From Odiellus spinosus (lineage: Eukaryota; Arthropoda; Arachnida; Opiliones; Phalangiidae), in assembly GCA_963920705.1 (NCBI GenBank), contig OY987234.1:2046001-2110000 (forward strand): DNA of 64,000 nucleotides, read 5' to 3'. How positions within the stretch are numbered: the stretch's first letter is position 1; every line of letters starts with the position of its first letter. Below are positions 1 through 64,000 of the stretch, piece after piece. The position numbers and the translations under genes were made by a program. Below the pieces are notes generated by a model. The model saw only the letters and a program-made list of their open reading frames with translations. It did no database searches and had not been told where the DNA came from.

Positions 1-184
1 GATCTACACTTGGGAAATTTGTGGATCTACACTTGGGAAATTTGTGGATCTACACTTGGGAAATTTGTGGATCTACACTTGGGAAATTTGTGGATCTACA
101 CTTGGGAAATTTGTGGATCTACACTTGGGAAATTTGTGGATCTACACTTGGGAAATTTGTGGATCTACACTTGGGAAATTTGTG
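1..184. repeat. Run of eight consensus monomers
   Basis: Eight consecutive monomers are identical to the consensus with A at position 6. A ninth (185-207) differs only near its end, where GTG becomes GAG. The window edge truncates the run, so its true length is unknown. Such runs are candidates for recent local expansion or for sites of homogenisation. Confidence 0.9.
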
Positions 185-1517
185 GATCTACACTTGGGAA
201 ATTTGAGGATCTGCACTTGGGAAATTTTTGGATCTGCACTTGGGAAATTTGTGGATCTGCACTTGGGAAATTTGTGGTTCTACACATGGGAAATTTGTGG
301 ATCTACATTTGGGAAATTTGTGGATCTACACTTGGGAAATTTGTGGATCTACACTTGGGAAATTTGTGGATCTACACTTGGGAAATTTGTGGATCTACAC
401 TTGGGAAATTTGTGGATCTACATTTGGGAAATTTGTGGATCGACACTTGGGAAATTTGTGGATCGACACTTGGGAAATTTGTGGATCTATACTTCTGAAA
501 TTTGTGGATCTACACTTAGGAATTTTGTGGATCTACACTTGGGAAATAGGAGGATCTGCACTTGGGAAATTTGTGGATCTGCACTTGGGAAATTTGTGGA
601 TCTACACTTGGGAAATTTGTGGATCTGCACTTGGGAAATTTGTGGATCTGCACTTGGGAAATTTGTGGATCTGCACTTGGGAAATTTGTGGATCTGCACT
701 TGGGAAATTTGTGGATCTGCTCTTGGGAAATTTGTGGATATGCACTTGGGAAATTTGTGGATCTGCACTTGGGAAATTTTTGGATCTGCACTTGTGAAAT
801 TTGTGGATCTGCACTTGGGAAATTTGTGGTTCTGCACATGGGAAATTTGTGGTTCTACAATTGGGAAATTTGTGGACCTACATTTTGGAAATTTGTGGAT
901 CTACACTTGGGAAATTTGTGGATCTACACTTGGGAAATTTGTGATCTGCACTTGGGAATTTTGTGGATCTGCACTTGTGAAATTTGTGGATCTGCACTTG
1001 GGAAATTTGTGGATCTGCACTTGGAAAATTTGTGGATCTGCACTTGGGAAATTTGTGGATCTGAACTTGGGAAATTTGTGGATCCATACTTCTGAAATTT
1101 GTGGATCTACACTTAGGAAATTTGTGGATCTACACTTGGGAAATTTGTGGATCCATACTTCTGAAATTTGTGGATCTACACTTAGGAAATTTGTGGATCT
1201 ACACTTGGGAAATTTGAGGATCTGCACTTGGGAAATTTTTGGATCTGCACTTGGGAAATTTGTGGATCTGAACTTGGGAAATTTGTGGATCTGCACTTGG
1301 GAAATTTGTGGATCTCCACTTGGGAAATTTGTGGATCTGCACTTGGGAAATTTGTGGATCTACACTTGGGAAATTTGTGGATCTATACTTGGGAAATTTG
1401 TGGATCTACACTTGGGAAATTTGTGGATCTACACTTGGGAAATTTGTGGATCTACACTTGGGAAATTTGTGGATCTACATTTGGGAAATTTGTGGATCTA
1501 CACTTGGGAAATTTGTG
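185..1517. repeat. HOR block, first copy (about 58 monomers)
   Basis: This block is repeated immediately downstream at 1518-2735. The offset is 1333 bp at its left end, 1310 bp across the cassette (875 and 2185) and 1287 bp further right; each step of 23 bp is one monomer gained or lost in one copy. It contains the AAATAGGAGG monomer near 545, the CTGCTCTTGGG and ATATGCAC monomers near 717-760, the GACC-start monomer at 875 and the first 22-bp monomer at 921. Near 1080-1200 the CCATACTTCTG plus CACTTAGG pair is itself doubled. Confidence 0.85.
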
Positions 1518-2735
1518 GATCTACACTTGGGAAATTTGAGGATCTGCACTTGGGAAATTTTTGGATCTGCACTTGGGAAATTTGTGGATCTGCACTTGGG
1601 AAATTTGTGGTTCTACACATGGGAAATTTGTGGATCTACTTTTGGGAAATTTGTGGATCTACACTTGGGAAATTTGTGGATCTACACTTGGGAAATTTGT
1701 GGATCTACACTTGGGAAATTTGTGGATCTACACTTGGGAAATTTGTGGATCTACATTTGGGAAATTTGTGGATCGACACTTGGGAAATTTGTGGATCTAT
1801 ACTTCTGAAATTTGTGGATCTACACTTAGGAATTTTGTGGATCTACACTTGGGAAATAGGAGGATCTGCACTTGGGAAATTTGTGGATCTGCACTTGGGA
1901 AATTTGTGGATCTACACTTGGGAAATTTGTGGATCTGCACTTGGGAAATTTGTGGATCTGCACTTGGGAAATTTGTGGATCTGCACTTGGGAAATTTGTG
2001 GATCTGCACTTGGGAAATTTGTGGATCTGCTCTTGGGAAATTTTTGGATATGCACTTGGGAAATTTGTGGATCTGCACTAGGGAAATTTTTGGATCTGCA
2101 CTTGTGAAATTTGTGGATCTGCACTTGGGAAATTTGTGGTTCTGCACATGGGAAATTTGTGGTTCTACAATTGGGAAATTTGTGGACCTACATTTTGGAA
2201 ATTTGTGGATCTACACTTGGGAAATTTGTGGATCTACATTTGGGAAATTTGTGATCTGCACTTGGGAATTTTGTGGATCTGCACTTGTGAAATTTGTGGA
2301 TCTGCACTTGGGAAATTTGTGGATCTGCACTTGGAAAATTTGTGGATCTGCACTTGGGAAATTTGTGGATCTGAACTTGGAAAATTTGTTTATCTGCACT
2401 TGGGAAATTTGTGGATCTACACTTGGGAAATTTGTGGATCCATACTTCTGAAATTTGTGGATCTACACTTAGGAAATTTGTGGATCTACACTTGGGAAAT
2501 TTGAGGATCTGCACTTCGGAAATTTTTGGATCTGCACTTGGGAAATTTGTGGATCTGAACTTGGGAAATTTGTGGATCTGCACTTGGGAAATTTGTGGAT
2601 CTGCACTTGGGAAATTTGTGGATCTGCACTTGGGAAATTTGTGGATCTACACTTGGGAAATTTGTGGATCTATACTTGGGAAATTTGTGGATCTACACTT
2701 GGGAAATTTGTGGATCTACACTTGGGAAATTTGTG
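1518..2735. repeat. HOR block, second tandem copy
   Basis: Downstream copy of 185-1517. It differs at scattered sites, for example CACTAGGG near 2088 and AAAATTTGTTTATC near 2383. Its part 1541-2451 matches 5358-6268 at an offset of 3817 bp (166 monomers less one base for the intervening 22-bp monomer), sharing even the rare CACTAGGG variant, so these two regions are closer relatives than the tandem neighbour is. Confidence 0.82.
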
Positions 2736-4230
2736 GATCTACACTTGGGAAATTTGTGGATCTATACTTCTGAAATTTGTGGATCTACACTTAGGAAATT
2801 TGTGGATCTACACTTGGGAAATTTTTGGATCTACACTTAGGAAATTTGCGGATCTATACTTCTGAAATTTGTGGATCTACACTTAGGAAATTTGTTTATC
2901 TACACTTGGGAAATTTGAGTATCTGCACTTGGGAAATTTTTGGATCTGCACTTGGGAAATTTGTGGATCTACACTTGGGAAATTTGTGGATCTGCACTTG
3001 GGAAATTTGTGGATCTGCACTTGGGAAATTTGTGGATCTGCACTTGGGAAATTTGTGGATCTGCTCTTGGGAAATTTGTGGATATGCACTTGGGAAATTT
3101 GTGGATCTGCACTTGTGAAATTTGTGGATCTGCACTTGGGAAATTTGTGGTTCTGCACATGGGAAATTTGTGGTTCTACAATTGGGAAATTTGTGGACCT
3201 ACATTTTGGAAATTTGTGGATCTACACTTGGGAAATTTGTGGATCTACACTTGGGAAATTTGAGGATCTGCACTTGGGAAATTTTTGGATCTGCACTTGG
3301 GAAATTTGTGGTTCTACACATGGGAAATTTGTGGATCTACTTTTGGGAAATTTGTGGATCTACACTTGGGAAATTTGTGGATCTACACTTGGGAAATTTG
3401 TGGATCTACACTTGGGAAATTTGTGGATCTACATTTGGGAAATTTGTGGATCTACATTTGGGAAATTTGTGGATCGACACTTGGGAAATTTGTGGATCTA
3501 TACTTCTGAAATTTGTGGATCTACACTTAGGAATTTTGTGGATCTACACTTGGGAAATAGGAGGATCTGCACTTGGGAAATTTTTGGATCTGCACTTGGG
3601 AAATTTGTGGATCTGAACTTGGGAAATTTGTGGATCTGCACTTGGGAAATTTGTGGATCTGCACTTGGGAAATTTGTGGATCTGCACTTGGGAAATTTGT
3701 GGATCTACACTTGGGAAATTTGTGGATCTATACTTGGGAAATTTGTGGATCTACACTTGGGAAATTTGTGGATCTACACTTGGGAAATTTGTGGATCTAC
3801 ACTTGGGAAATTTGTGGATCTATACTTCTGAAATTTGTGGATCTACACTTAGGAAATTTGTGGATCTACACTTGGGAAATTTTTGGATCTACACTTGGGA
3901 AATTTGTGGATCTATACTTCTGAAATTTGTGGATCTACACTTAGGAAATTTGTGGATCTACACTTGGGAAATTTGAGGATCTGCACTTGGGAAATTTTTG
4001 GATCTGCACTTGGGAAATTTGTGGATCTACACTTGGGAAATTTGTGGATCTACACTTGGGAAATTTGTGGATCTATACTTCTGAAATTTGTGGATCTACA
4101 CTTAGGAAATTTGTGGATCTACACTTGGGAAATTTTTGGATCTACACTTAGGAAATTTGTGGATCTATACTTCTGAAATTTGTGGATCTACACTTAGGAA
4201 ATTTGTTTATCTACACTTGGGAAATTTGAG
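2736..4230. repeat. HOR segment with one cassette, no 22-bp monomer
   Basis: Contains the GACC-start monomer at 3196 but lacks the 22-bp monomer that normally follows it; a GAGGATCTGC monomer follows instead. Pairs of CTATACTTCTG and CACTTAGG monomers recur near 2757, 2847, 3500, 3823, 3910, 4075 and 4165. The cassette at 3196 relates to that at 4530 at 1334 bp, exactly 58 monomers. Near 2845 a rare GCGGATC junction creates a CpG. Confidence 0.75.
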
Positions 4231-5748: not shown

Positions 5749-7796
5749 GATCTGCACTTGGGAAATTTGTGGATCTGCACTTGGGAAATTTGTGGATCTG
5801 CACTTGGGAAATTTGTGGATCTGCACTTGGGAAATTTGTGGATCTGCTCTTGGGAAATTTGTGGATATGCACTTGGGAAATTTGTGGATCTGCACTAGGG
5901 AAAGTTTTGGATCTGCACTTGTGAAATTTGTGGATCTGCACTTGGGAAATTTTTGGTTCTGCACATGGGAAATTTGTGGTTCTACAATTGGGAAATTTGT
6001 GGACCTACATTTTGGAAATTTGTGGATCTACACTTGGGAAATTTGTGGATCTACATTTGGGAAATTTGTGATCTGCACTTATGAATTTTGTGGATCTGCA
6101 CTTGTGAAATTTGTGGATCTGCACTTGGGAAATTTGTGGATCTGCACTTGGAAAATTTGTGGATCTGCACTTGGGAAATTTGTGGATCTGAACTTGGGAA
6201 ATTTGTTTATCTGCACTTGGGAAATTTGTGGATCTACACTTGGGAAATTTGTGGATCCATACTTCTGAAATTTGTGGATCTACACTTAGGAAATTTGTGG
6301 ATCTATACTTGGGAAATTTGAGGATCTGCACTTGGGAAATTTTTGGATCTGCACTTGGGAAATTTGTGGATCTGAACTTGGGAAATTTGTGGATCAGCAC
6401 TTGGGAAATTTGTGGATCTGCACTTGGGAAATTTGTGGATCTGCACTTGGGAAATTTGTGGATCTACACTTCGGAAATTTGTGGATCTATACTTGGGAAA
6501 TTTGTGGATCTACACTTGGGAAATTTGTGGATCTACACTTGGGAAATTTGTGGATCTACACTTGGGAAATTTGTGGATCTATACTTCTGAAATTTGTGGA
6601 TCTACACTTAGGAAATTTGTGGATCTACACTTGGGAAATTTTTGGATCTACACTTGGGAAATTTGTGGATCTATACTTCTGAAATTTGTGGATCTACACT
6701 TAGGAAATTTGTGGATCTACACTTGGGAAATTTGAGGATCTGCACTTGGGAAATTTTTGGATCTGCACTTGGGAAATTTGTGGATCTACACTTGGGAAAT
6801 TTGTGGATCTGCACTTGGGAAATTTGTGGATCTGCACTTGGGAAATTTGTGGATCTGCACTTGGGAAATTTGTGGATCTGCACTTGGGAAATTTGTGGAT
6901 CTGCTCTTGGGAAATTTGTGGATATGCACTTGGGAAATTTGTGGATCTGCACTTGTGAAATTTGTGGATCTGCACTTGGGAAATTTGTGGTTCTGCACAT
7001 GGGAAATTTGTGGTTCTACAATTGGGAAATTTGTGGACCTACATTTTGGAAATTTGTGGATCTACACTTGGGAAATTTGTGGATCTACACTTGGGAAATT
7101 TGTGATCTGCACTTGGGAATTTTGTGGATCTGCACTTGTGAAATTTGTGGATCTGCACTTGGGAAATTTGTGGATCTGCACTTGGAAAATTTGTGGATCT
7201 GCACTTGGGAAATTTGTGGATCTGAACTTGGGAAATTTGTTTATCTGCACTTGGGAAATTTGTGGATCTACACTTGGGAAATTTTTGGATCCATACTTCT
7301 GAAATTTGTGGATCTACACTTAGGAAATTTGTGGATCTACACTTGGGAAATTTGAGGATCTGCACTTGGGAAATTTTTGGATCTGCACTTGGGAAATTTG
7401 TGGATCTGAACTTGGGAAATTTGTGGATCTGCACTTGGGAAATTTGTGGATCTGCACTTGGGAAATTTGTGGATCTGCACTTGGGAAATTTGTGGATCTA
7501 CACTTGGGAAATTTGTGGATCTATACTTCAGAAATTTGTGGATCTACACTTGGGAAATTTGTGGATCTACACTTGGGAAATTTGTGGATCTACACTTGGG
7601 AAATTTGTTGATCTATACTTCTGAAATTTGTGGATCTACACTTAGGAAATTTGTGGATCTACACTTGGGAAATTTTTGGATCTACACTTGGGAAATTTGT
7701 GGATCTATACTTCTGAAATTTGTGGATCTACACTTAGAAAATTTGTGGATCTACACTTGGGAAATTTGAGGATCTGCACTTGGGAAATTTTGGGAT
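5749..7796. repeat. HOR segment with cassettes at 6002 and 7036
   Basis: Two cassettes, 1034 bp apart (45 monomers less one base), each followed by a 22-bp monomer (6048 and 7082). The part 6005-6400 matches 7039-7434 at this same offset. Near 6080 an isolated CTTATGAATTTTG monomer resembles a marker otherwise typical of the right domain. The segment 7500-7800 has CTTCAGAAA, GTTGATC and CTTAGAAAA variants. Confidence 0.72.
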
Positions 7797-9538: not shown

Positions 9539-9610
9539 GTTCTACACATGGGAAATTTGTGGATCTGCATTTGGGAAATTTGTGGATCTGCACTTGGGAA
9601 ATTTGTGGAT

Positions 9611-11375: not shown

Positions 11376-11467
11376 GATCTGCACTTGGGAAATTTTTGGA
11401 TCTGCACTTTCGAAATTTGTGGATCTGCACTTGGGAAATTTGTGGTTCTACACATGGGAAATTTGTG

Positions 11468-36359: not shown

Positions 36360-39300
36360 GTGGATCTACACTTGGGAAATTTGTGGATCTACACTTGGGA
36401 AATTTGTGGATCTACACTTGGGAAAGTTGTGGATCTACACTTGGGAAATTTGTGGATCTACACTTGGGAAATTTGTGGATCTACACTTGGGAAATTTGTG
36501 GATCTTTACTTGGGAAATTTGAGGATCTGCACTTGGGAAATTTTTGGATCTGCACTTGGGAAATTTGTGGATCTGCACTTGGGAAATTTGTGGTTCTACA
36601 CTTGGGAAATTTGTGGATCTACACTTGGGAAATTTGTGGATCTACACTTGGGAAATTTGTGGATCTACACTTGGGAAATTTGTGGATCTGCACTTGGGAA
36701 ATTTGTGGATCTACACTTGGGAAATTTGTGGATCTACATTTGGGAAATTTGTGGATCTACACTTGGAAAATTTGTGGATCTACTCTTGGGAAATTTGTGG
36801 ATCTGCAATTTAGAAATTTGTGGATCTACACCTGGGAAATTTGTGGATCTGCACTTATGAAATTTGTGGTTCTACACTTGGGAAATTTGTGGATCTACAT
36901 TTGGGAAATTTGTGGATCTACACTAGGGAAATTTGTGGATCTACACTTGGGAAATTTGTGGGTCTACACTTGGGAAATTTGTGGATCTACACTTGGGAAA
37001 TTTGTGGATTTACACTTGGGAAATTTGTGGATCTACACTTGGGAAATTTTTGGATCTACACTTGGGAAATTTGGTGATCTACACTTGGGGAATTTGTGGA
37101 TCTACACTTGGGAAATTTGTGGATCTACACTTGGGAAATTTGTGGATCTACATTTGGGAAATTTGTGGATCTACACTTGGGAAATTTGAGGATCTACACT
37201 TGGGAAATTTGTGGATCTGCACTTGGTAAATTTTTGGATCTGCACTTGGGAAATTTGTGGATCTGCACTTGGGAAATTTGTGGTTCTACACTTGGGAAAT
37301 TTGTGGATCTACATTTGGGAAATTTGTGGGTCTACACTTGGGAAATTTGTGGATCTACACTTGGGAAATTTGTGGATTTACACTTGGGGAATTTGTGGAT
37401 CTATACTTGGGAAATTTTTGGTTCTACACTTGGGAAATTTGGTGATCTACACTTGGGAAATTTGTGGATCTACACTTGGGAAATTTGTGGATCTACACTT
37501 GGGAAATTTGTGGATCTACACTTGGGAAATTTGTGGATCTATACTTCTGAAATTTGTGGATCTATACTTAGGAATTTTGTGGATCTACACTTGGGAAATA
37601 GGAGGATCTGCACTTGGGAAATTTGTGGATCTGTACTTATGAAATTTGTGGATCTGCACTTATGAAATTTGTGGATCTGCACTTGGGAAATTTGTGGATC
37701 TGCACTTGGGAAATTTGTGGATCTGCACTTGGGAAATTTGTGGATCTGAACTTGGGAAATTTGTGGATCAGCACTTGGGAAATTTGTGGATCTGCACATG
37801 GGAAATTTGTGGTTCTACAATTGGGAAATTTGTGGACCTACATTTTGAAAATTTGTGGATCTACACTTGGGAAATTTGTGGATCTACACTTGGGAAATTT
37901 GTGATCTGCACTTGGGAAATTTGTGGATCTGCACTTGTGAAATTTGTGGATCTGCACTTGGGAAATTTGTGGATCTGCACTTGGGAAATTTGTGGATCTG
38001 CACTTGGGAAATTTGTGGATCTGAACTTGGGAAATTTGTTTATCTGCACTTGGGAAATTTGTGGATCTACACTTGGGAAATTTGTGGATCCATACTTCTG
38101 AAATTTGTGGATCTACACTTAGGAAATTTGTGGATCTACACTTGGGAAATTTGAGGATCTGCACTTGGGAAATTTTTGGATCTGCACTTGGGAAATTTGT
38201 GGATCTGAACTTGGGAAATTTGTGGATCTGCACTTGGGAAATTTGTGGATCTGCACTTGGGAAATTTGTGGATCTGCACTTGGGAAATTTGTGGATCTAC
38301 ACTTGGGAAATTTGTGGATCTATACTTGGGAAATTTGTGGATCTACACTTGGGAAATTTTTGGATCTACACTTGGGAAATTTGGTGATCTACACTTGGGA
38401 AATTTGTGGATCTACACTTGGGAAATTTGTGGATCTACACTTGGGAAATTTGTGGATCTACACTTGGAAAATTTGTGGATCTATACTTCTGAAATTTGTG
38501 GATCTATACTTAGGAATTTTGTGGATCTACACTTGGGAAATAAGAGGATCTGCACTTGGGAAATTTGTGGATCTGCACTTATGAAATTTGTGGATCTGCA
38601 CTTATGAAATTTGTGGATCTGCACTTGGGAAATTTGTGGATCTGCACTTGGGAAATTTGTGGATCTGCACTTGGGAAATTTGTGGATCTGCACTTTTGAA
38701 ATTTGTGGATCTACACTTGGGAAATTTGTGGATATGCACTTGGGAAATTTGTGGATCTGCACTTGGGAAATTTTTGGATCTGCACTTGGGAAATTTGTGG
38801 ATCTGCACTTGGGAAATTTGTGGATCTGCACATGGGATATTTGTGGATCTACAATTGGGAAATTTGTGGACCTACATTTGGGAAATTTGTGGATCTACAC
38901 TTGGGAAATTTGTGGATCTGCACTTGGGAAATTTGTGGATCTACACTTGGGAAATTTTTGGATCTGCACTTGGGAAATTTGTGGATCTGCACTTGGGAAA
39001 TTTGTGGTTCTACACTTGGGAAATTTGTGGATCTGAACTTGGGAAATTTGTTTATCTGCACTTGGGAAATTTGTGGATCTACACTTGGGAAATTTGTGGA
39101 TCCATACTTCTGAAATTTGTGGATCTACACTTGGGAATTTTGTGGATCTACACTTGGGAAATAAGAGGATCTGCACTTGGGAAATTTGTGGATCTGCACT
39201 TATGAAATTTGTGGATCTGCACTTATGAAATTTGTGGATCTGCACTTGGGAAATTTGTGGATCTGCACTTGGGAAATTTGTGGATCTGCACTTGGGAAAT

Positions 39301-39660
39301 TTGTGGATCTGCACTTTTGAAATTTGTGGATCTACATTTGGGAAATTTGTGGATCTACACTTGGGAAATTTGTGGATCTACACTTGGGAAATTTGTGGAT
39401 CTGCACTTGGGAAATTAGTGGATCTATACTTGGGAAATTTGTGGATCTACATTTGGGAAATTTGTGGATCTACACTTGGGAAATTTGAGGATCTACACTT
39501 GGGAAATTTGTGGATCTGCACTTGGGAAATTTTTGGATCTGCACTTGGGAAATTTGTGGATCTGCACTTGGGAAATTTGTGGTTCTACACTTGGGAAATT
39601 TGTGGATCTACATTTGGGAAATTTGTGGATCTACACTTGGGAAATTTGTGGATCTACACT
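36360..39660. repeat. 3.3-kb block, copy 1 (offset 5555 to next)
   Basis: Copied at 41915-45215 at offset 5555 bp, which is 242 monomers less 11 bases: one for each of the 22-bp monomers at 37881 and 40387 and nine for the deletion near 41904. A CTGCAATTTAGAAA variant (near 36805, 42360 and 49333), CACTTGGGGAATTTG and CTGTACTTATG (near 37632, 43187 and 50160) define this lineage. Private changes in copy 1 include GGGAAAGTTGTGG near 36425 and CACTAGGG near 36923. The left part includes an R-family HOR. Confidence 0.87.
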
Positions 39661-41903: not shown

Positions 41904-41917
41904 GATCTACACTTGGG
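41904..41917. repeat. 9-bp deletion monomer 1
   Basis: The monomer is 14 bp: GGGAA runs straight into TCTACAC. Because 9 is a multiple of 3, the deletion keeps all three + strand frames in register. It sits exactly at a HOR switch point. Confidence 0.95.
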
Positions 41918-44900
41918 AATCTACACTTGGGAAATTTGTGGATCTACACTTGGGAAATTTGTGGATCTACACTTGGGAAATTTGTGGATCTACACTTGGG
42001 AAATTTGTGGATCTACACTTGGGAAATTTGTGGATCTACACTTGGGAAATTTGTGGATCTTTACTTGGGAAATTTGAGGATCTGCACTTGGGAAATTTTT
42101 GGATCTGCACTTGGGATATTTGTGGATCTGCACTTGGGAAATTTGTGGTTCTACACTTGGGAAATTTGTGGATCTACACTTGGGAAATTTGTGGATCTAC
42201 ACTTGGGAAATTTGTGGATCTACACTTGGGAAATTTGTGGATCTGCACTTGGGAAATTTGTGGATCTACACTTGGGAAATTTGTGGATCTACATTTGGGA
42301 AATTTGTGGATCTACACTTGGAAAATTTGTGGATCTACTCTTGGGAAATTTGTGGATCTGCAATTTAGAAATTTGTGGATCTACACCTGGGAAATTTGTG
42401 GATCTGCACTTATGAAATTTGTGGTTCTACACTTGGGAAATTTGTGGATCTACATTTGGGAAATTTGTGGATCTACACTTGGGAAATTTGTGGATCTACA
42501 CTTGGGAAATTTGTGGGTCTACACTTGGGAAATTTGTGGATCTACACTTGGGAAATTTGTGGATTTACACTTGGGAAATTTGTGGATCTACACTTGGGAA
42601 ATTTTTGGATCTACACTTGGGAAATTTGGTGATCTACACTTGGGGAATTTGTGGATCTACACTTGGGAAATTTGTGGATCTACACTTGGGAAATTTGTGG
42701 ATCTACATTTGGGAAATTTGTGGATCTACACTTGGGAAATTTGAGGATCTACACTTGGGAAATTTGTGGATCTGCACTTGGTAAATTTTTGGATCTGCAC
42801 TTGGGAAATTTGTGGATCTGCACTTGGGAAATTTGTGGTTCTACACTTGGGAAATTTGTGGATCTACATTTGGGAAATTTGTGGGTCTACACTTGGGAAA
42901 TTTGTGGATCTACACTTGGGAAATTTGTGGATTTACACTTGGGGAATTTGTGGATCTATACTTGGGAAATTTTTGGTTCTACACTTGGGAAATTTGGTGA
43001 TCTACACTTGGGAAATTTGTGGATCTACACTTGGGAAATTTGTGGATCTACACTTGGGAAATTTGTGGATCTACACTTGGGAAATTTGTGGATCTATACT
43101 TCTGAAATTTGTGGATCTATACTTAGGAATTTTGTGGATCTACACTTGGGAAATAGGAGGATCTGCACTTGGGAAATTTGTGGATCTGTACTTATGAAAT
43201 TTGTGGATCTGCACTTATGAAATTTGTGGATCTGCACTTGGGAAATTTGTGGATCTGCACTTGGGAAATTTGTGGATCTGCACTTGGGAAATTTGTGGAT
43301 CTGAACTTGGGAAATTTGTGGATCAGCACTTGGGAAATTTGTGGATCTGCACATGGGAAATTTGTGGTTCTACAATTGGGAAATTTGTGGACCTACATTT
43401 TGAAAATTTGTGGATCTACACTTGGGAAATTTGTGGATCTACACTTGGGAAATTTGTGATCTGCACTTGGGAAATTTGTGGATCTGCACTTGTGAAATTT
43501 GTGGATCTGCACTTGGGAAATTTGTGGATCTGCACTTGGGAAATTTGTGGATCTGCACTTGGGAAATTTGTGGATCTGAACTTGGGAAATTTGTTTATCT
43601 GCACTTGGGAAATTTGTGGATCTACACTTGGGAAATTTGTGGATCCATACTTCTGAAATTTGTGGATCTACACTTAGGAAATTTGTGGATCTACACTTGG
43701 GAAATTTGAGGATCTGCACTTGGGAAATTTTTGGATCTGCACTTGGGAAATTTGTGGATCTGAACTTGGGAAATTTGTGGATCTGCACTTGGGAAATTTG
43801 TGGATCTGCACTTGGGAAATTTGTGGATCTGCACTTGGGAAATTTGTGGATCTACACTTGGGAAATTTGTGGATCTATACTTGGGAAATTTGTGGATCTA
43901 CACTTGGGAAATTTTTGGATCTACACTTGGGAAATTTGGTGATCTACACTTGGGAAATTTGTGGATCTACACTTGGGAAATTTGTGGATCTACACTTGGG
44001 AAATTTGTGGATCTACACTTGGAAAATTTGTGGATCTATACTTCTGAAATTTGTGGATCTATACTTAGGAATTTTGTGGATCTACACTTGGGAAATAAGA
44101 GGATCTGCACTTGGGAAATTTGTGGATCTGCACTTATGAAATTTGTGGATCTGCACTTATGAAATTTGTGGATCTGCACTTGGGAAATTTGTGGATCTGC
44201 ACTTGGGAAATTTGTGGATCTGCACTTGGGAAATTTGTGGATCTGCACTTTTGAAATTTGTGGATCTACACTTGGGAAATTTGTGGATATGCACTTGGGA
44301 AATTTGTGGATCTGCACTTGGGAAATTTTTGGATCTGCACTTGGGAAATTTGTGGATCTGCACTTGGGAAATTTGTGGATCTGCACATGGGATATTTGTG
44401 GATCTACAATTGGGAAATTTGTGGACCTACATTTGGGAAATTTGTGGATCTACACTTGGGAAATTTGTGGATCTGCACTTGGGAAATTTGTGGATCTACA
44501 CTTGGGAAATTTTTGGATCTGCACTTGGGAAATTTGTGGATCTGCACTTGGGAAATTTGTGGTTCTACACTTGGGAAATTTGTGGATCTGAACTTGGGAA
44601 ATTTGTTTATCTGCACTTGGGAAATTTGTGGATCTACACTTGGGAAATTTGTGGATCCATACTTCTGAAATTTGTGGATCTACACTTGGGAATTTTGTGG
44701 ATCTACACTTGGGAAATAAGAGGATCTGCACTTGGGAAATTTGTGGATCTGCACTTATGAAATTTGTGGATCTGCACTTATGAAATTTGTGGATCTGCAC
44801 TTGGGAAATTTGTGGATCTGCACTTGGGAAATTTGTGGATCTGCACTTGGGAAATTTGTGGATCTGCACTTTTGAAATTTGTGGATCTACATTTGGGAAA

Positions 44901-45215
44901 TTTGTGGATCTACACTTGGGAAATTTGTGGATCTACACTTGGGAAATTTGTGGATCTGCACTTGGGAAATTTGTGGATCTATACTTGGGAAATTTGTGGA
45001 TCTACATTTGGGAAATTTGTGGATCTACACTTGGGAAATTTGAGGATCTACACTTGGGAAATTTGTGGATCTGCACTTGGGAAATTTTTGGATCTGCACT
45101 TGGGAAATTTGTGGATCTGCACTTGGGAAATTTGTGGTTCTACACTTGGGAAATTTGTGGATCTACATTTGGGAAATTTGTGGATCTACACTTGGGAAAT
45201 TTGTGGATCTACACT
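41915..45215. repeat. 3.3-kb block, copy 2
   Basis: Second copy of 36360-39660, beginning directly at the 9-bp deletion monomer. GGGATATTTG near 42115 is private. The left 3.0 kb, from about 41780, is copied again at 48753-51790. Confidence 0.87.
44490..45085. repeat. 713-bp-period duplication, copy 1
   Basis: Repeats at 45203-45798 with an offset of exactly 31 monomers. The same pair appears at 47425-48020 and 48138-48733, so the 713-bp event came before the 2935-bp one. Markers are CTGAAC, GTTTATC, CCATACTTCTG, CACTTGGGAATTTTG, AAATAAGAGG and CACTTTTGAAA. Confidence 0.86.
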
Positions 45216-45798
45216 TGGGAAATTTTTGGATCTGCACTTGGGAAATTTGTGGATCTGCACTTGGGAAATTTGTGGTTCTACACTTGGGAAATTTGTGGAT
45301 CTGAACTTGGGAAATTTGTTTATCTGCACTTGGGAAATTTGTGGATCTACACTTGGGAAATTTGTGGATCCATACTTCTGAAATTTGTGGATCTACACTT
45401 GGGAATTTTGTGGATCTACACTTGGGAAATAAGAGGATCTGCACTTGGGAAATTTGTGGATCTGCACTTATGAAATTTGTGGATCTGCACTTATGAAATT
45501 TGTGGATCTGCACTTGGGAAATTTGTGGATCTGCACTTGGGAAATTTGTGGATCTGCACTTGGGAAATTTGTGGATCTGCACTTTTGAAATTTGTGGATC
45601 TACATTTGGGAAATTTGTGGATCTACACTTGGGAAATTTGTGGATCTACACTTGGGAAATTTGTGGATCTGCACTTGGGAAATTTGTGGATCTATACTTG
45701 GGAAATTTGTGGATCTACATTTGGGAAATTTGTGGATCTACACTTGGGAAATTTGAGGATCTACACTTGGGAAATTTGTGGATCTGCACTTGGGAAAT
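45203..45798. repeat. 713-bp-period duplication, copy 2
   Basis: Second copy of 44490-45085. It ends where GATTTAC (near 45800) replaces the TTTTTGG monomer of copy 1. Confidence 0.86.
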
Positions 45799-45941
45799 TT
45801 GTGGATTTACACTTGGGAAATTTGTGGATCTATACTTGGGAAATTTTTGGATCTACACTTGGGAAATTTGGTGATCTACACTTGGGAAATTTGTGGATCT
45901 ACACTTGGGAAATTTGTGGATCTACACTTGGGAAATTTGTG

Positions 45942-45955
45942 GATCTACACTTGGG
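45942..45955. repeat. 9-bp deletion monomer 2
   Basis: Same junction as at 41904, 4038 bp downstream (176 monomers less 10 bases). The surrounding order, with TTTGGTGATC and consensus monomers before it and consensus monomers after it, is the same. Confidence 0.95.
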
Positions 45956-46080
45956 AATCTACACTTGGGAAATTTGTGGATCTACACTTGGGAAATTTGT
46001 GGATCTACACTTGGGAAATTTGTGGATCTACACTTGGGAAATTTGTGGATCTACACTTGGGAAATTTGTGGATCTACACT

Positions 46081-46624
46081 TGGGAACTTTGTGGATCTAC
46101 ACTTGGGAAATTTGTGGATCTACACTTGGGAAATTTGTGGATCTACACTTGGGAAATTTGTGGGTCTGAACTTGGGAAATTTGTGGATCTGCACTTGGGA
46201 AATTTGTGGATCTGCACTTGGGAAATTTGTGGATCTGCACTTGGGAAATTTGTGGATCTACACTTGGGAAATTTGTGGATCTATACTTGGGAAATTTGTG
46301 GATCTACACTTGGGAAATTTTTGGATCTACACTTGGGAAATTTGGTGATCTACACTTGGGAAATTTGTGGATCTACACTTGGGAAATTTGTGGATCTACA
46401 CTTGGGAAATTTGTGGATCTACACTTGGAAAATTTGTGGATCTATACTTCTGAAATTTGTGGATCTATACTTAGGAATTTTGTGGATCTGCACTTGGGAA
46501 ATTTGTGGATCTGAACTTGGGAAATTTGTTTATCTGCACTTGGGAAATTTGTGGATCTACACTTGGGAAATTTGTGGATCTACACTTGGGAAATTTGTGG
46601 ATCTACACTTGGGAACTTTGTGGA
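46081..46624. repeat. Patchwork segment with GGGAACTTTG markers
   Basis: GGGAACTTTG occurs near 46083 and 46613, and a GGTCTGAAC start near 46163. Between them lie the CTATACTTGGG, TTTGGTGATC, CTTGGAAAA, CTATACTTCTG series and a GTTTATC monomer near 46528. The two GGGAACTTTG sites at its ends suggest a short private duplication. Confidence 0.68.
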
Positions 46625-49015
46625 TCTACACTTGGGAAATTTGAGGATCTGCACTTGGGAAATTTTTGGATCTGCACTTGGGAAATTTGTGGATCTGAAC
46701 TTGGGAAATTTGTGGATCTGCACTTGGGAAATTTGTGGATCTGCACTTGGGAAATTTGTGGATCTGCACTTGGGAAATTTGTGGATCTACACTTGGGAAA
46801 TTTGTGGATCTATACTTGGGAAATTTGTGGATCTACACTTGGGAAATTTTTGGATCTACACTTGGGAAATTTGGTGATCTACACTTGGGAAATTTGTGGA
46901 TCTACACTTGGGAAATTTGTGGATCTACACTTGGGAAATTTGTGGATCTACACTTGGAAAATTTGTGGATCTATACTTCTGAAATTTGTGGATCTATACT
47001 TAGGAATTTTGTGGATCTACACTTGGGAAATAAGAGGATCTGCACTTGGGAAATTTGTGGATCTGCACTTATGAAATTTGTGGATCTGCACTTATGAAAT
47101 TTGTGGATCTGCACTTGGGAAATTTGTGGATCTGCACTTGGGAAATTTGTGGATCTGCACTTGGGAAATTTGTGGATCTGCACTTTTGAAATTTGTGGAT
47201 CTACACTTGGGAAATTTGTGGATATGCACTTGGGAAATTTGTGGATCTGCACTTGGGAAATTTTTGGATCTGCACTTGGGAAATTTGTGGATCTGCACTT
47301 GGGAAATTTGTGGATCTGCACATGGGATATTTGTGGATCTACAATTGGGAAATTTGTGGACCTACATTTGGGAAATTTGTGGATCTACACTTGGGAAATT
47401 TGTGGATCTGCACTTGGGAAATTTGTGGATCTACACTTGGGAAATTTTTGGATCTGCACTTGGGAAATTTGTGGATCTGCACTTGGGAAATTTGTGGTTC
47501 TACACTTGGGAAATTTGTGGATCTGAACTTGGGAAATTTGTTTATCTGCACTTGGGAAATTTGTGGATCTACACTTGGGAAATTTGTGGATCCATACTTC
47601 TGAAATTTGTGGATCTACACTTGGGAATTTTGTGGATCTACACTTGGGAAATAAGAGGATCTGCACTTGGGAAATTTGTGGATCTGCACTTATGAAATTT
47701 GTGGATCTGCACTTATGAAATTTGTGGATCTGCACTTGGGAAATTTGTGGATCTGCACTTGGGAAATTTGTGGATCTGCACTTGGGAAATTTGTGGATCT
47801 GCACTTTTGAAATTTGTGGATCTACATTTGGGAAATTTGTGGATCTACACTTGGGAAATTTGTGGATCTACACTTGGGAAATTTGTGGATCTGCACTTGG
47901 GAAATTTGTGGATCTATACTTGGGAAATTTGTGGATCTACATTTGGGAAATTTGTGGATCTACACTTGGGAAATTTGAGGATCTACACTTGGGAAATTTG
48001 TGGATCTGCACTTGGGAAATTTTTGGATCTGCACTTGGGAAATTTGTGGATCTGCACTTGGGAAATTTGTGGTTCTACACTTGGGAAATTTGTGGATCTA
48101 CATTTGGGAAATTTGTGGATCTACACTTGGGAAATTTGTGGATCTACACTTGGGAAATTTTTGGATCTGCACTTGGGAAATTTGTGGATCTGCACTTGGG
48201 AAATTTGTGGTTCTACACTTGGGAAATTTGTGGATCTGAACTTGGGAAATTTGTTTATCTGCACTTGGGAAATTTGTGGATCTACACTTGGGAAATTTGT
48301 GGATCCATACTTCTGAAATTTGTGGATCTACACTTGGGAATTTTGTGGATCTACACTTGGGAAATAAGAGGATCTGCACTTGGGAAATTTGTGGATCTGC
48401 ACTTATGAAATTTGTGGATCTGCACTTATGAAATTTGTGGATCTGCACTTGGGAAATTTGTGGATCTGCACTTGGGAAATTTGTGGATCTGCACTTGGGA
48501 AATTTGTGGATCTGCACTTTTGAAATTTGTGGATCTACATTTGGGAAATTTGTGGATCTACACTTGGGAAATTTGTGGATCTACACTTGGGAAATTTGTG
48601 GATCTGCACTTGGGAAATTTGTGGATCTATACTTGGGAAATTTGTGGATCTACATTTGGGAAATTTGTGGATCTACACTTGGGAAATTTGAGGATCTACA
48701 CTTGGGAAATTTGTGGATCTGCACTTGGGAAATTTGTGGATTTACACTTGGGAAATTTGTGGATCTATACTTGGGAAATTTTTGGATCTACACTTGGGAA
48801 ATTTGGTGATCTACACTTGGGAAATTTGTGGATCTACACTTGGGAAATTTGTGGATCTACACTTGGGAAATTTGTGGATCTACACTTGGGAATCTACACT
48901 TGGGAAATTTGTGGATCTACACTTGGGAAATTTGTGGATCTACACTTGGGAAATTTGTGGATCTACACTTGGGAAATTTGTGGATCTACACTTGGGAAAT
49001 TTGTGGATCTACACT
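46625..49015. repeat. 2.4-kb block, copy 2
   Basis: Second copy of 43690-46080 at offset 2935. Beyond 49015 it continues as the 3-kb block (GATCTTTAC near 49030), whereas copy 1 continues into the patchwork segment. Confidence 0.86.
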
Positions 49016-51790
49016 TGGGAAATTTGTGGATCTTTACTTGGGAAATTTGAGGATCTGCACTTGGGAAATTTTTGGATCTGCACTTGGGAAATTTGTGGAT
49101 CTGCACTTGGGAAATTTGTGGTTCTACACTTGGGAAATTTGTGGATCTACACTTGGGAAATTTGTGGATCTACACTTGGGAAATTTGTGGATCTACACTT
49201 GGGAAATTTGTGGATCTGCACTTGGGAAATTTGTGGATCTACACTTGGGAAATTTGTGGATCTACATTTGGGAAATTTGTGGATCTACACTTGGAAAATT
49301 TGTGGATCTACTCTTGGGAAATTTGTGGATCTGCAATTTAGAAATTTGTGGATCTACACCTGGGAAATTTGTGGATCTGCACTTATGAAATTTGTGGTTC
49401 TACACTTGGGAAATTTGTGGATCTACATTTGGGAAATTTGTGGATCTACACTTGGGAAATTTGTGGATCTACACTTGGGAAATTTGTGGGTCTACACTTG
49501 GGAAATTTGTGGATCTACACTTGGGAAATTTGTGGATTTACACTTGGGAAATTTGTGGATCTACACTTGGGAAATTTTTGGATCTACACTTGGGAAATTT
49601 GGTGATCTACACTTGGGGAATTTGTGGATCTACACTTGGGAAATTTGTGGATCTACACTTGGGAAATTTGTGGATCTACATTTGGGAAATTTGTGGATCT
49701 ACACTTGGGAAATTTGAGGATCTACACTTGGGAAATTTGTGGATCTGCACTTGGTAAATTTTTGGATCTGCACTTGGGAAATTTGTGGATCTGCACTTGG
49801 GAAATTTGTGGTTCTACACTTGGGAAATTTGTGGATCTACATTTGGGAAATTTGTGGGTCTACACTTGGGAAATTTGTGGATCTACACTTGGGAAATTTG
49901 TGGATTTACACTTGGGGAATTTGTGGATCTATACTTGGGAAATTTTTGGTTCTACACTTGGGAAATTTGGTGATCTACACTTGGGAAATTTGTGGATCTA
50001 CACTTGGGAAATTTGTGGATCTACACTTGGGAAATTTGTGGATCTACACTTGGGAAATTTGTGGATCTATACTTCTGAAATTTGTGGATCTATACTTAGG
50101 AATTTTGTGGATCTACACTTGGGAAATAGGAGGATCTGCACTTGGGAAATTTGTGGATCTGTACTTATGAAATTTGTGGATCTGCACTTATGAAATTTGT
50201 GGATCTGCACTTGGGAAATTTGTGGATCTGCACTTGGGAAATTTGTGGATCTGCACTTGGGAAATTTGTGGATCTGAACTTGGGAAATTTGTGGATCAGC
50301 ACTTGGGAAATTTGTGGATCTGCACATGGGAAATTTGTGGTTCTACAATTGGGAAATTTGTGGACCTACATTTTGAAAATTTGTGGATCTACACTTGGGA
50401 AATTTGTGGATCTACACTTGGGAAATTTGTGATCTGCACTTGGGAAATTTGTGGATCTGCACTTGTGAAATTTGTGGATCTGCACTTGGGAAATTTGTGG
50501 ATCTGCACTTGGGAAATTTGTGGATCTGCACTTGGGAAATTTGTGGATCTGAACTTGGGAAATTTGTTTATCTGCACTTGGGAAATTTGTGGATCTACAC
50601 TTGGGAAATTTGTGGATCCATACTTCTGAAATTTGTGGATCTACACTTAGGAAATTTGTGGATCTACACTTGGGAAATTTGAGGATCTGCACTTGGGAAA
50701 TTTTTGGATCTGCACTTGGGAAATTTGTGGATCTGAACTTGGGAAATTTGTGGATCTGCACTTGGGAAATTTGTGGATCTGCACTTGGGAAATTTGTGGA
50801 TCTGCACTTGGGAAATTTGTGGATCTACACTTGGGAAATTTGTGGATCTATACTTGGGAAATTTGTGGATCTACACTTGGGAAATTTTTGGATCTACACT
50901 TGGGAAATTTGGTGATCTACACTTGGGAAATTTGTGGATCTACACTTGGGAAATTTGTGGATCTACACTTGGGAAATTTGTGGATCTACACTTGGAAAAT
51001 TTGTGGATCTATACTTCTGAAATTTGTGGATCTATACTTCTGAAATTTGTGGATCTACACTTGGGAAATAAGAGGATCTGCACTTGGGAAATTTGTGGAT
51101 CTGCACTTATGAAATTTGTGGATCTGCACTTATGAAATTTGTGGATCTGCACTTGGGAAATTTGTGGATCTGCACTTGGGAAATTTGTGGATCTGCACTT
51201 GGGAAATTTGTGGATCTGCACTTTTGAAATTTGTGGATCTACACTTGGGAAATTTGTGGATATGCACTTGGGAAATTTGTGGATCTGCACTTGGGAAATT
51301 TTTGGATCTGCACTTGGGAAATTTGTGGATCTGCACTTGGGAAATTTGTGGATCTGCACATGGGATATTTGTGGATCTACAATTGGGAAATTTGTGGACC
51401 TACATTTGGGAAATTTGTGGATCTACACTTGGGAAATTTGTGGATCTGCACTTGGGAAATTTGTGGATCTACACTTGGGAAATTTTTGGATCTGCACTTG
51501 GGAAATTTGTGGATCTGCACTTGGGAAATTTGTGGTTCTACACTTGGGAAATTTGTGGATCTGAACTTGGGAAATTTGTTTATCTGCACTTGGGAAATTT
51601 GTGGATCTACACTTGGGAAATTTGTGGATCCATACTTCTGAAATTTGTGGATCTACACTTGGGAATTTTGTGGATCTACACTTGGGAAATAAGAGGATCT
51701 GCACTTGGGAAATTTGTGGATCTGCACTTATGAAATTTGTGGATCTGCACTTATGAAATTTGTGGATCTGCACTTGGGAAATTTGTGGAT
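48753..51790. repeat. 3.0-kb block, copy 3 (offset 6973)
   Basis: Copy of 41780-44815 at offset 6973 (304 monomers less 19 bases: two 9-bp deletions and one 22-bp monomer). It includes its own 9-bp deletion monomer at 48877. Near 51040 it carries a CTTCTGAAA monomer where the other copies have CTTAGGAATTTT, a replacement that matches the monomer immediately before it. Confidence 0.87.
48877..48890. repeat. 9-bp deletion monomer 3
   Basis: Same junction again, 2935 bp after monomer 2 (128 monomers less 9 bases). The three deletions are best read as one event copied twice. Confidence 0.95.
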
Positions 51791-60437: not shown

Positions 60438-60870
60438 TACATTTGGGAAATTTGTGGATCTACACTTGGGAAATTTGTGGATCTACTCTTGGGAAATTTG
60501 TGGATCTGCACTTTAGAAATTTGTGGATCTACACTTGGGAAATTTGTGGATCTGCACTTATGAAATTTGTGGTTCTACACTTGGGAAATTTGTGGATCTA
60601 CATTTGGGAAATTTGTGGATCTACACTTGGGAAATTTGTGGATCTACACTTGGGAAATTTGTGGGTCTACACTTGGGAAATTTGTGGATCTACACTTGGG
60701 AAATTTGTGGATTTACACTTGGGAAATTTGTGGATCTACACTTGGGAAATTTTTGGATCTACACTTGGGAAATTTGGTGATCTACACTTGGGAAATTTGT
60801 GGATCTACACTTGGGAAATTTGTGGATCTACACTTGGGAAATTTGTGGATCTACACTTGGAAAATTTGTG

Positions 60871-60891
60871 GATCTATACTTCTGAAATTTG
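60871..60891. repeat. 21-bp monomer (2-bp deletion) 1
   Basis: A CTATACTTCTG monomer whose end reads AAATTTGGATC instead of AAATTTGTGGATC. It shifts the local phase by two bases. The same variant is at 63055. Confidence 0.95.
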
Positions 60892-61397
60892 GATCTATAC
60901 TTAGGAATTTTGTGGATCTACACTTGGGAAATAAGAGGATCTGCACTTGGGAAATTTGTGGATCTGCACTTATGAAATTTGTGGATCTGCACTTATGAAA
61001 TTTGTGGATCTGCACTTGGGAAATTTGTGGATCTGCACTTGGGAAATTTGTGGATCTGCACTTGGGAAATTTGTGGATCTGAACTTGGGAAATTTGTGGA
61101 TCAGCACTTGGGAAATTTGTGGATCTACATTTGGGAAATTTGTGGATCTACACTTGGGAAATTTGTGGATCTACACTTGGGAAATTTGTGGATCTGCACT
61201 TGGGAAATTTGTGGATCTACACTTGGGAAATTTGTGGATCTACATTTGGGAAATTTGTGGATCTACACTTGGGAAATTTGAGGATCTACACTTGGGAAAT
61301 TTGTGGATCTGCACTTGGGAAATTTTTGGATCTGCACTTGGGAAATTTGTGGATCTGCACTTGGGAAATTTGTGGTTCTACACTTGGGAAATTTGTG

Positions 61398-61421
61398 GAT
61401 CTACATTTGGGAAATTTGTTG
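61398..61421. repeat. 24-bp monomer (1-bp insertion) 1
   Basis: A CTACATTTGGG monomer ending GTTG instead of GTG, followed by a monomer starting GTTCAACAC. It is the only insertion type found; its partner is at 63582. Confidence 0.93.
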
Positions 61422-61815
61422 GTTCAACACTTGGGAAATTTGTGGATCTACACTTGGGAAATTTGTGGATTTACACTTGGGAAATTTGTGGATCTATACC
61501 TGGGAAATTTTTGGATCTACACTTGGGAAATTTGGTGATCTACACTTGGGAAATTTGTGGATCTACACTTGGGAAATTTGTGGATCTACACTTGGGAAAT
61601 TTGTGGATCTACACTTGGGAAATTTGTGGATCTACACTTGGGAAATTTGTGGATCTATACTTCTGAAATTTGTGGATCTATACTTAGGAATTTTGTGGAT
61701 CTACACTTGGGAAATAGGAGGATCTGCACTTGGGAAATTTGTGGATCTGCACTTATGAAATTTGTGGATCTGCACTTGGGAAATTTGTGCATCTGCACTT
61801 GGGAAATTTGTGGAT

Positions 61816-62750
61816 CTGCACTTGGGAAATTTGTGGATCTGAACTTGGGAAAGTTGTGGATCAGCACTTGGGAAATTTGTGGATCTACACTTGGGAAATT
61901 TGTGGATCCATACTTCTGAAATTTGTGGATCTACACTTAGGAAATTTGTGGATCTACACTTGGGAAATTTGAGGATCTGCATTTGGGAAATTTTTGGATC
62001 TGCACTTGGGAAATTTGTGGATCTGAACTTGGGAAATTTGTGGATCTGCACTTGGGAAATTTGTGGATCTGCACTTGGGAAATTTGTGGATCTGCACTTG
62101 GGAAATTTGTGGATCTGCACTTGGGAAATTTGTGGATCTACACTTGGGAAATTTGTGGATCTATACTTGGGAAATTTGTGGATCTACACTTGGGAAATTT
62201 GTGGATCTACACTTGGGAAATTTGTGGATCTACACTTGGAAAATTTGTGGATCTATACTTCTGAAATTTGTGGATCTATACTTAGGAATTTTGTGGATCT
62301 ACACTTGGGAAATAAGAGGATCTGCACTTGGGAAATTTGTGGATCTGCACTTATGAAATTTGTAGATCTGCACTTGGGAAATTTGTGGATCTGCACTTGG
62401 GAAATTTGTGGATCTGCACTTGGGAAATTTGTGGATCTGCACTTGGGAAATTTGTGGATCTGAACTTGGGAAATTTGTGGATCAGCACTTGGGAAATTTG
62501 TGGATCTACATTTGGGAAATTTGTGGATCTACACTTGGGAAATTTGTGGATCTACACTTGGGAAATTTGTGGATCTGCACTTGGGAAATTTGTGGATCTA
62601 CACTTGGGAAATTTGTGGATCTACATTTGGGAAATTTGTGGATCTACACTTGGGAAATTTGAGGATCTACACTTGGGAAATTTGTGGATCTGCACTTGGG
62701 AAATTTTTGGATCTGCACTTGGGAAATTTGTGGATCTGCACTTGGGAAAT
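61816..62750. repeat. Spacer part of the 2184-bp HOR
   Basis: Contains CCATACTTCTG near 61905, GAGG and CTGAAC series, CTATACTTGGG near 62160, CTTGGAAAA, AAATAAGAGG near 62311 and GATCAGCAC near 62484. The part 62.28-62.75 kb resembles 60.9-61.4 kb. GGGAAAGTTGTGG near 61850 is a rare variant. Confidence 0.72.
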
Positions 62751-63054
62751 TTGTGGTTCTACACTTGGGAAATTTGTGGATCTACATTTGGGAAATTTGT
62801 GGATCTACACTTGGGAAATTTGTGGATCTACACTTGGGAAATTTGTGGGTCTACACTTGGGAAATTTGTGGATCTACACTTGGGAAATTTGTGGATTTAC
62901 ACTTGGGAAATTTGTGGATCTACACTTGGGAAATTTTTGGATCTACACTTGGGAAATTTGGTGATCTACACTTGGGAAATTTGTGGATCTACACTTGGGA
63001 AATTTGTGGATCTACACTTGGGAAATTTGTGGATCTACACTTGGAAAATTTGTG

Positions 63055-63075
63055 GATCTATACTTCTGAAATTTG
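63055..63075. repeat. 21-bp monomer (2-bp deletion) 2
   Basis: Same deletion as at 60871, exactly 2184 bp downstream. These are the only two in the window. Confidence 0.95.
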
Positions 63076-63581
63076 GATCTATACTTAGGAATTTTGTGGA
63101 TCTACACTTGGGAAATAAGAGGATCTGCACTTGGGAAATTTGTGGATCTGCACTTATGAAATTTGTGGATCTGCACTTATGAAATTTGTGGATCTGCACT
63201 TGGGAAATTTGTGGATCTGCACTTGGGAAATTTGTGGATCTGCACTTGGGAAATTTGTGGATCTGAACTTGGGAAATTTGTGGATCAGCACTTGGGAAAT
63301 TTGTGGATCTACATTTGGGAAATTTGTGGATCTACACTTGGGAAATTTGTGGATCTACACTTGGGAAATTTGTGGATCTGCACTTGGGAAATTTGTGGAT
63401 CTACACTTGGGAAATTTGTGGATCTACATTTGGGAAATTTGTGGATCTACACTTGGGAAATTTGAGGATCTACACTTGGGAAATTTGTGGATCTGCACTT
63501 GGGAAATTTTTGGATCTGCACTTGGGAAATTTGTGGATCTGCACTTGGGAAATTTGTGGTTCTACACTTGGGAAATTTGTA

Positions 63582-63605
63582 GATCTACATTTGGGAAATT
63601 TGTTG
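63582..63605. repeat. 24-bp monomer (1-bp insertion) 2
   Basis: Same insertion as at 61398, exactly 2184 bp downstream, confirming that the whole 2184-bp unit was copied. Confidence 0.93.
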
Positions 63606-64000
63606 GTTCAACACTTGGGAAATTTGTGGATCTACACTTGGGAAATTTGTGGATTTACACTTGGGAAATTTGTGGATCTATACCTGGGAAATTTTTGGAT
63701 CTACACTTGGGAAATTTGGTGATCTACACTTGGGAAATTTGTGGATCTACACTTGGGAAATTTGTGGATCTACACTTGGGAAATTTGTGGATCTACACTT
63801 GGGAAATTTGTGGATCTACACTTGGGAAATTTGTGGATCTATACTTCTGAAATTTGTGGATCTATACTTAGGAATTTTGTGGATCTACACTTGGGAAATA
63901 GGAGGATCTGCACTTATGAAATTTGTGGATCTGCACTTGGGAAATTTGTGCATCTGCACTTGGGAAATTTGTGGATCTGCACTTGGGAAATTTGTGGATC

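What the first reader, a model, noticed from the sequence alone, without database searches (positions are those of the whole stretch)
1..64000. A complete 64-kb window of a possibly undescribed 23-bp satellite
The sequence is one monomer family from end to end, in one orientation, with no interruption by transposons or unique DNA. Hand counting gives 2,785 monomer steps, and all phase shifts are explained by 37 indel monomers in four types. I do not recognise the monomer. Large pure arrays of this kind are typical of centromeric, pericentromeric or subtelomeric heterochromatin, which is an inference here.
Basis: partly seen in the sequence, partly recalled or inferred. Interest (0 to 1): 0.7.

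Follow-up and report, generated by a model that had tools for sequence, protein, structure and literature searches.

The report
23-bp satellite on harvestman chromosome 10
The window is pure, 23-base tandem-repeat (satellite) DNA from a roughly 3-million-base array on chromosome 10 of the harvestman Odiellus spinosus; it is a real and apparently unpublished family of an ordinary kind of DNA, whose role in chromosome structure is plausible but untested.

Summary
The window is 2,785 complete monomers plus 4 bases of consensus GATCTACACTTGGGAAATTTGTG, all on one strand, with no N and no foreign DNA, and 37 indel events of four kinds. The source is Odiellus spinosus chromosome 10 (OY987234.1), matched by scaffold lengths. 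The genome note does not mention repeats, and six strings of the monomer were in no paper of the library. Around the window the array runs from scaffold base 1 to about 3.08 Mb, changes strand at least four times, carries one 14.9-kb transposon-like insert, and ends at a 200-base scaffold gap. Related variants form blocks on at least five other chromosomes. Inside the window 82% of monomers lie in exact strings of ten or more monomers repeated elsewhere in the window (shuffles 0%), so it is a patchwork of higher-order copies with a chromosome-specific word. Most likely it is pericentromeric or centromeric heterochromatin kept alike by unequal exchange. The location is inferred, and the exact forms searched were not listed on chromosomes 1 and 3-7. 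A new member of a known kind.

The parts
1..64000 (+). Uninterrupted head-to-tail array of the 23-bp monomer GATCTACACTTGGGAAATTTGTG: 2,785 complete monomers plus 4 bases
36926..39416 (+). Longest exact higher-order copy in the window (2,491 bp, includes a run of 107 identical monomers), copy 1
42481..44971 (+). Longest exact higher-order copy (2,491 bp), copy 2, 5,555 bp downstream
43682..46086 (+). Second longest exact higher-order copy (2,405 bp, includes a run of 104 identical monomers), copy 1
46617..49021 (+). Second longest exact higher-order copy (2,405 bp), copy 2, 2,935 bp downstream
41905..41933 (+). Place of a 9-bp loss (14-bp unit doubled)
45943..45971 (+). Place of the same 9-bp loss
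48878..48906 (+). Place of the same 9-bp loss
1080..1127 (+). One example of the 48-base marker word beginning GGATCCATACTTCTG, found 54 times in the assembly (26 in the window), only at chromosome 10 positions 2.030-2.110 and 2.566-2.621 Mb
   Evidence: C12:2047080-2047127

Best explanation
The window is the interior of a roughly 3.08-Mb array of a 23-bp satellite family on Odiellus spinosus chromosome 10. Shown: the array, its extent in the assembly by samples and cut boundaries, its strand switches, its patchwork of exactly repeated multi-monomer strings, and related blocks on other chromosomes. Inferred: the array grows and stays alike by unequal crossing-over, conversion or replication-linked copying of blocks of tens to about 100 monomers. 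Inferred: it works as packaging DNA, heterochromatin next to or at the centromere of several chromosomes, and codes for nothing.
For: Array purity and counts. 82% of monomers lie in exact strings of at least 10 monomers that recur in the window, against 0.0% in 20 shuffles and at most 6.6% in 20 first-order Markov controls; 31% for strings of at least 50, controls 0.0%. Exact copies reach 2,491 bp while neighbouring monomers are about 91% alike. A marker word occurs 54 times, all on chromosome 10, in two places about 0.5 Mb apart. The exact dimer occurs 22,385 + 4,180 times in the assembly, 0 times for the pattern read backwards. Satellite was found on chromosomes 2, 8, 9, 10, 13 and 14 and at the start of 1 of 20 unplaced contigs sampled, 7 of which read N there. 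On chromosome 2 the block is internal (about 27.09-27.80 of 34.49 Mb). The genome has a CENP-A-like histone exon (C8:14,476,886-14,477,110; the label is mine). Harvestmen usually have biarmed monocentric chromosomes, and heteropycnotic blocks at the centromere of some chromosomes are reported for South African Phalangiidae (PMC5904373, passages). The longest window stretch repeated without gaps at 50 mismatches or fewer is 4.0 kb, below the 12-20 kb shear size of the HiFi library, so the local assembly is believable.
Against: No chromatin or FISH data exist here. The exact forms searched are not listed on chromosomes 1 and 3-7 (chromosome 1), so it is not shown at every centromere; diverged forms could have been missed. 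On chromosomes 8, 9, 10, 13 and 14 the block is at one end of the scaffold, which would also fit a subtelomeric or short-arm block. The array joins the rest of chromosome 10 only across a 200-base scaffold gap.
Confidence: 0.66

Rival explanations
1. Subtelomeric or short-arm (acrocentric-type) heterochromatin rather than centromeric DNA: the block caps one end of the chromosomes that carry it.
For: On chromosomes 8, 9, 10, 13 and 14 the block lies at the start of the scaffold, and on 9, 10 and 13 the other end is a TTAGG telomere.
Against: The chromosome 2 block lies 6.7 Mb from the telomeric end of its scaffold. Scaffolds may start in the array because assembly stopped there. The last 400 bases of 12 of 18 contig ends are TTAGG-type repeat with no satellite, but the telomere fills the sampled stretch, so this says little.
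Confidence: 0.25
2. It is the functional centromere: CENP-A nucleosomes sit on this 23-bp repeat (a special case of the best explanation).
For: Mb-scale tandem arrays with chromosome-specific higher-order copies resemble human alpha-satellite organisation; a CENP-A-like exon is present.
Against: The exact forms searched are not listed on six of the 16 chromosomes, 1 and 3-7. No CENP-B box in the window (motif recalled; 0 on either strand). The 12-base near-palindrome in the monomer is not beyond chance (590 of 5,000 shuffled monomers do as well).
Confidence: 0.2
3. The array is an assembly artefact or a wrongly expanded stretch.
For: The array meets unique chromosome 10 DNA only across a 200-base gap, and the scaffold starts inside it.
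Against: No N in the window. No ungapped internal near-copy longer than about 4 kb at 50 mismatches or fewer, against 12-20 kb HiFi fragments. Related but different variants occur on other chromosomes.
Confidence: 0.03
4. It codes for a repetitive protein.
For: The + strand consensus has no stop codon in any frame, and 3 open frames of 549, 600 and 687 codons exist.
Against: 23 is not a multiple of 3, so all three frames are open by the same accident; only 3 frames of at least 500 codons exist in 64 kb. The chance that a 23-base circle lacks stops is about one third (own arithmetic).
Confidence: 0.01

Closest known systems
Human alpha-satellite higher-order repeats
   Same: Multi-monomer strings are near-identical copies while neighbouring monomers differ more, and strings can be chromosome-specific (here; alpha satellite from PMC8122249, passages).
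   Different: Monomer 23 bp rather than about 171 bp (171 recalled); no constant higher-order period here; neighbours about 91% alike here against about 70% there; CENP-A binding not known; no CENP-B box in the window.
Short-unit pericentromeric satellites (human satellite I, 17/25 bp; mouse TRPC-21A, 21 bp)
   Same: Unit of about 20 bp in tandem arrays (unit lengths from PMC8122249 Table 2, passage).
   Different: A harvestman, and pericentromeric position not shown here. The sequences were not compared.
Drosophila simple centromeric satellites (mostly 5-10 bp units)
   Same: Short-unit arthropod satellites (PMC8122249, passage).
   Different: Unit length differs; no chromatin data here.

Membership tests
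Satellite DNA | Long head-to-tail tandem array of one unit | tested here: met
   about 3.08 Mb by sampled points and cut boundaries
Satellite DNA | High copy number at several loci of the genome | tested here: met
   26,565 exact dimers and 65,562 exact 35-base matches of the TATA variant in the assembly; found on chromosomes 2, 8, 9, 10, 13, 14
Satellite DNA | Non-coding | tested here: inconclusive
   Only accidental open frames; no Rfam family at gathering score; transcripts not examined
Satellite DNA | Heterochromatic | not testable with these tools
   needs H3K9me3 profiling, or C-banding with FISH
Centromeric satellite | CENP-A occupancy | not testable with these tools
   a CENP-A-like exon exists, but there are no ChIP data
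Centromeric satellite | A block on every chromosome | tested here: inconclusive
   found on 6 of 16 chromosomes; exact forms searched not listed on chromosomes 1 and 3-7; chromosomes 11, 12, 15, 16 sampled only at their two ends, one of which read N
Centromeric satellite | CENP-B box (in those families that have it; motif recalled) | tested here: not met
   0 matches on either strand of the window; many centromeric satellites lack it (recalled)
Subtelomeric satellite | Directly next to telomere repeats | tested here: inconclusive
   none of 12 telomeric contig ends shows it in the last 400 bases, but these are all or nearly all telomere-type repeat

The most novel reading that the evidence does not exclude
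A 23-bp satellite with alpha-satellite-like, chromosome-specific but aperiodic higher-order copying is the functional centromere DNA of a group of harvestman chromosomes, others using different short repeats, and its unit descends from a 23-bp subterminal repeat of a large terminal-inverted-repeat transposon still found inside the array.
Probability: 0.07. Interest if true: 0.55.

Novelty: new member of a known kind. Interest (0 to 1): 0.3.

Why it matters
I found no earlier sequence-level description of a harvestman satellite in the searches listed (four of these were capped listings). The array is a HiFi-assembled short-unit satellite of about 3 Mb in which block copying and strand switches can be read directly. 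It gives a ready FISH or CUT&RUN probe for harvestman chromosomes. It does not by itself change any general view of satellites.

Tried and rejected
DNA folding: the dinucleotide-shuffle z-score of -5.89 looked striking, but against tandem arrays of shuffled monomers 154 of 500 fold as well, and the 12-base near-palindrome is matched by 590 of 5,000 shuffled monomers. Rejected as a special feature.

A fixed higher-order period: lags of 91, 593, 242 and 304 monomers stand out only weakly, so copies are a patchwork, not a regular higher-order repeat.

Coding: rejected. Structured RNA: no Rfam family at gathering score. Microbial origin: no exact match of one pattern each in genome contigs and viral contigs, and no match of the first 1,500 bases in plasmids.

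Origin from the inserted element's 23-bp subterminal repeat: same period and a weak alignment, but 127 of 3,000 shuffled units score as high, and I had already seen several other repeats of that element. Two other places with that end show a 23-bp period too, and no satellite at 6 mismatches or fewer. Kept only as a lead.

Total family size: densities are too uneven for a firm number (5.4 dimers per kb on chr10; 1.2 to 11.3 TATA-variant matches per kb on chromosomes 14, 2, 8 and the unplaced contig, from samples of 0.3-1.8 kb). Spans between satellite-positive samples add up to about 10-11 Mb if continuous.

Naming the species from the mitochondrial protein was tried from memory and did not settle it; an assembly-size search found nothing; a search for harvestman genome notes and the scaffold lengths settled it.
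Full report
WHAT IS THERE. The window is a single tandem array of GATCTACACTTGGGAAATTTGTG. A cyclic alignment gives 2,786 pieces: 2,785 complete monomers and 4 last bases. 2,745 are exactly 23 bp; of these, 641 equal the consensus and none differs from it at more than 4 places. There are 37 indel events of four kinds. Tandem Repeats Finder agrees: 1-64000, period 23, 2,783.2 copies. Base composition is even along the window (GC about 0.39, GC skew about +0.35), as one strand of one repeat would give. The main variable site is monomer position 6 (A 57%, G 43%).

SOURCE. The window is C12:2046001-2110000 of an assembly of 443,074,358 bases in 286 contigs. (TTAGG)n fills the last bases of 12 of 18 contig ends and its complement 2 contig starts. 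Mitochondrial genes read under code 5 in the order ND2-COI-COII-ATP8-ATP6 (COI by Pfam, the other names by recall). The genome note for the harvestman Odiellus spinosus (PMC11503004; I read parts 1 and 2 of 4 and made one term search) gives a longest scaffold of 35,433,943 bp, exactly the length of C1, and 16 chromosome lengths that match C1-C8 and C11-C18. C12 is therefore chromosome 10, OY987234.1, 23.73 Mb.

THE ARRAY AROUND THE WINDOW. Samples were cut at chosen points of C12. Satellite was present at base 1 and at every sampled point to 3.07 Mb except 1.395 and 1.40 Mb, and absent in all 12 samples between 3.08 and 5.0 Mb. The strand is + at 0-0.1 Mb, - at 0.3-1.1, + at 1.2-1.955, - from 1,955,868 to about 2,000,336, and + at all sampled points from there to 3.08 Mb. 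The switch at 1,955,867 has no spacer: it reads CTTGGGAAATTTCCCAAG, a perfect palindrome through the AAATTT of the monomer. The one at about 2,000,336 reads CCACAAATAGTGG, another small fold-back. Only these two switch points were read. The gap between 1,386,735 and 1,401,632 is a 14,898-bp insert. The array ends at about 3,079,633, next to 200 N at 3,079,651-3,079,850, so its join to unique DNA is a scaffold gap.

OTHER CHROMOSOMES. The exact dimer occurs 22,385 + 4,180 times and a 35-base TATA variant 49,380 + 16,182 times; the patterns read backwards give 0. By place samples the family is on chromosomes 2 (internal, first exact hit at 27.09 Mb, also at 27.50 and 27.80; not 27.0 or 28.5), 8 (0, 0.2, 1.0, 2.0 Mb; not 4.0), 9 (from about 2.2 kb; 0.2, 1.0; not 2.0 or 4.0), 10, 13 (0, 0.2, 1.0, 2.0; not 4.0) and 14 (the same points; not 4.0). 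It was at the start of 1 of 20 unplaced contigs, of which 7 read N, and of none of 3 more, of which 1 read N. The listings hold only the first 100 places and appear to run in contig order. They show the exact dimer on chromosome 2 (11 places) and then chromosome 9, so none on 1 and 3-8, and the exact 60-base TATA string on 2 (1 place) and then 8, so none on 1 and 3-7. Variants differ between chromosomes in the small samples counted: TATA type on 8, the unplaced contig and mostly 2, canonical type on 9, 10 and 13, both on 14.

HOW IT EVOLVES. The 2,786 pieces use only 156 different sequences. 82% of monomers lie in exact strings of at least 10 monomers that recur in the window; 20 shuffles give 0.0% and 20 first-order Markov series at most 6.6%. 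For at least 50 monomers the figure is 31% against 0.0%. At 5 monomers the Markov control reaches 82% against 93%, so only the longer strings speak. The longest exact copies are 2,491 and 2,405 bp. No single period explains them. A marker word has 54 exact copies in the assembly, 26 of them in the window, all on chromosome 10, in two regions about 0.5 Mb apart. This is what repeated copying of blocks of tens to about 100 monomers would leave, with homogenisation inside a chromosome and even inside a region. That mechanism is inference from pattern.

FUNCTION. The best reading is structural heterochromatin at or beside the centromeres of several chromosomes. For it: Mb size, the internal block on chromosome 2, harvestmen's usually biarmed monocentric chromosomes and the heteropycnotic centromere blocks reported for some chromosomes of South African Phalangiidae (PMC5904373, passages only; Odiellus is not mentioned there), and a CENP-A-like histone exon (the label is mine, from its loop difference to H3 as I recall CENP-A). 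Against: absence of the exact forms from the listings for chromosomes 1 and 3-7, and the end-of-scaffold position on five chromosomes. Nothing here measures chromatin.

NULL RESULTS. No CENP-B box. Fold and dyad symmetry are within the range of shuffled monomers. No Rfam match at gathering score. No match in the microbial, viral or plasmid collections searched, none expected.

LITERATURE. Nine paper searches were run. Six monomer strings: 0 papers. Two 23-bp satellite searches: 0 papers each. Wider satellite and harvestman searches gave capped listings of titles and abstract starts, none in the listed part about a harvestman satellite. Melters and others 2013 (PMC4053949; listing and passages) has no '23 bp', 'arthropod' or 'spider'. 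The review PMC8122249 (abstract and passages) says most units are nucleosomal or 5-10 bp, and lists units of 17, 21 and 25 bp, so 23 bp is uncommon but not unique.

VERDICT. Real, cleanly measured, apparently undescribed, and of a known kind.

Noticed in passing
L195-L197 (chromosome 10: 1,386,735-1,401,632): A 14.9-kb element inside the satellite array with inverted ends (ACCCTTACGAAAAT / ATTTTCGTAAGGGT), internal 33-, 41- and 23-bp repeats and a 631-aa open frame without a Pfam hit over cut-off or a PHROGs match; that frame has 71 matching rows in the assembly, itself included, one other near-identical.
   Followed up: partly
L195 about 6700-7100: The element's subterminal 23-bp repeat TGGATCCAAACCAGATCAAATTT has the same period as the satellite and a weak resemblance (127 of 3,000 shuffled units score as high).
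   Followed up: partly
L069 (C11:1-1800, chromosome 9 start, about 0.4 kb before its satellite): Several open frames on the minus strand; one has a sub-threshold match to an adenovirus core-protein model (E 7e-4, 19.9 bits against a cut-off of 25), and by eye a nucleotide-binding-like frame lies next to it. Possibly a Polinton- or adintovirus-like remnant (recalled, not tested).
   Followed up: partly
C17 (chromosome 15), 1.1-4.4 Mb: 9 of 13 COX1 matches lie on chromosome 15, probably nuclear copies of mitochondrial DNA.
   Followed up: no
L087 (C8:14,476,886-14,477,110): Histone exon that looks like CENP-A.
   Followed up: partly
L074, L075, L101, L106, L133, L135, L153: Other short tandem repeats at contig ends or near the chromosome 2 block: units of 14, 18 and 22 bp (14 bp computed for L135 and L153; the others counted by eye). 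Different chromosomes may carry different short satellites.
   Followed up: no
L168 (chromosome 10, 3.15 Mb): A non-satellite sample just beyond the array has its own weak 23-bp period (0.66 self-identity).
   Followed up: no
C9 and C10: Two contigs of 2.33 and 1.41 Mb follow chromosome 8 in the record order and are probably its unlocalised pieces (length order; inference).
   Followed up: no
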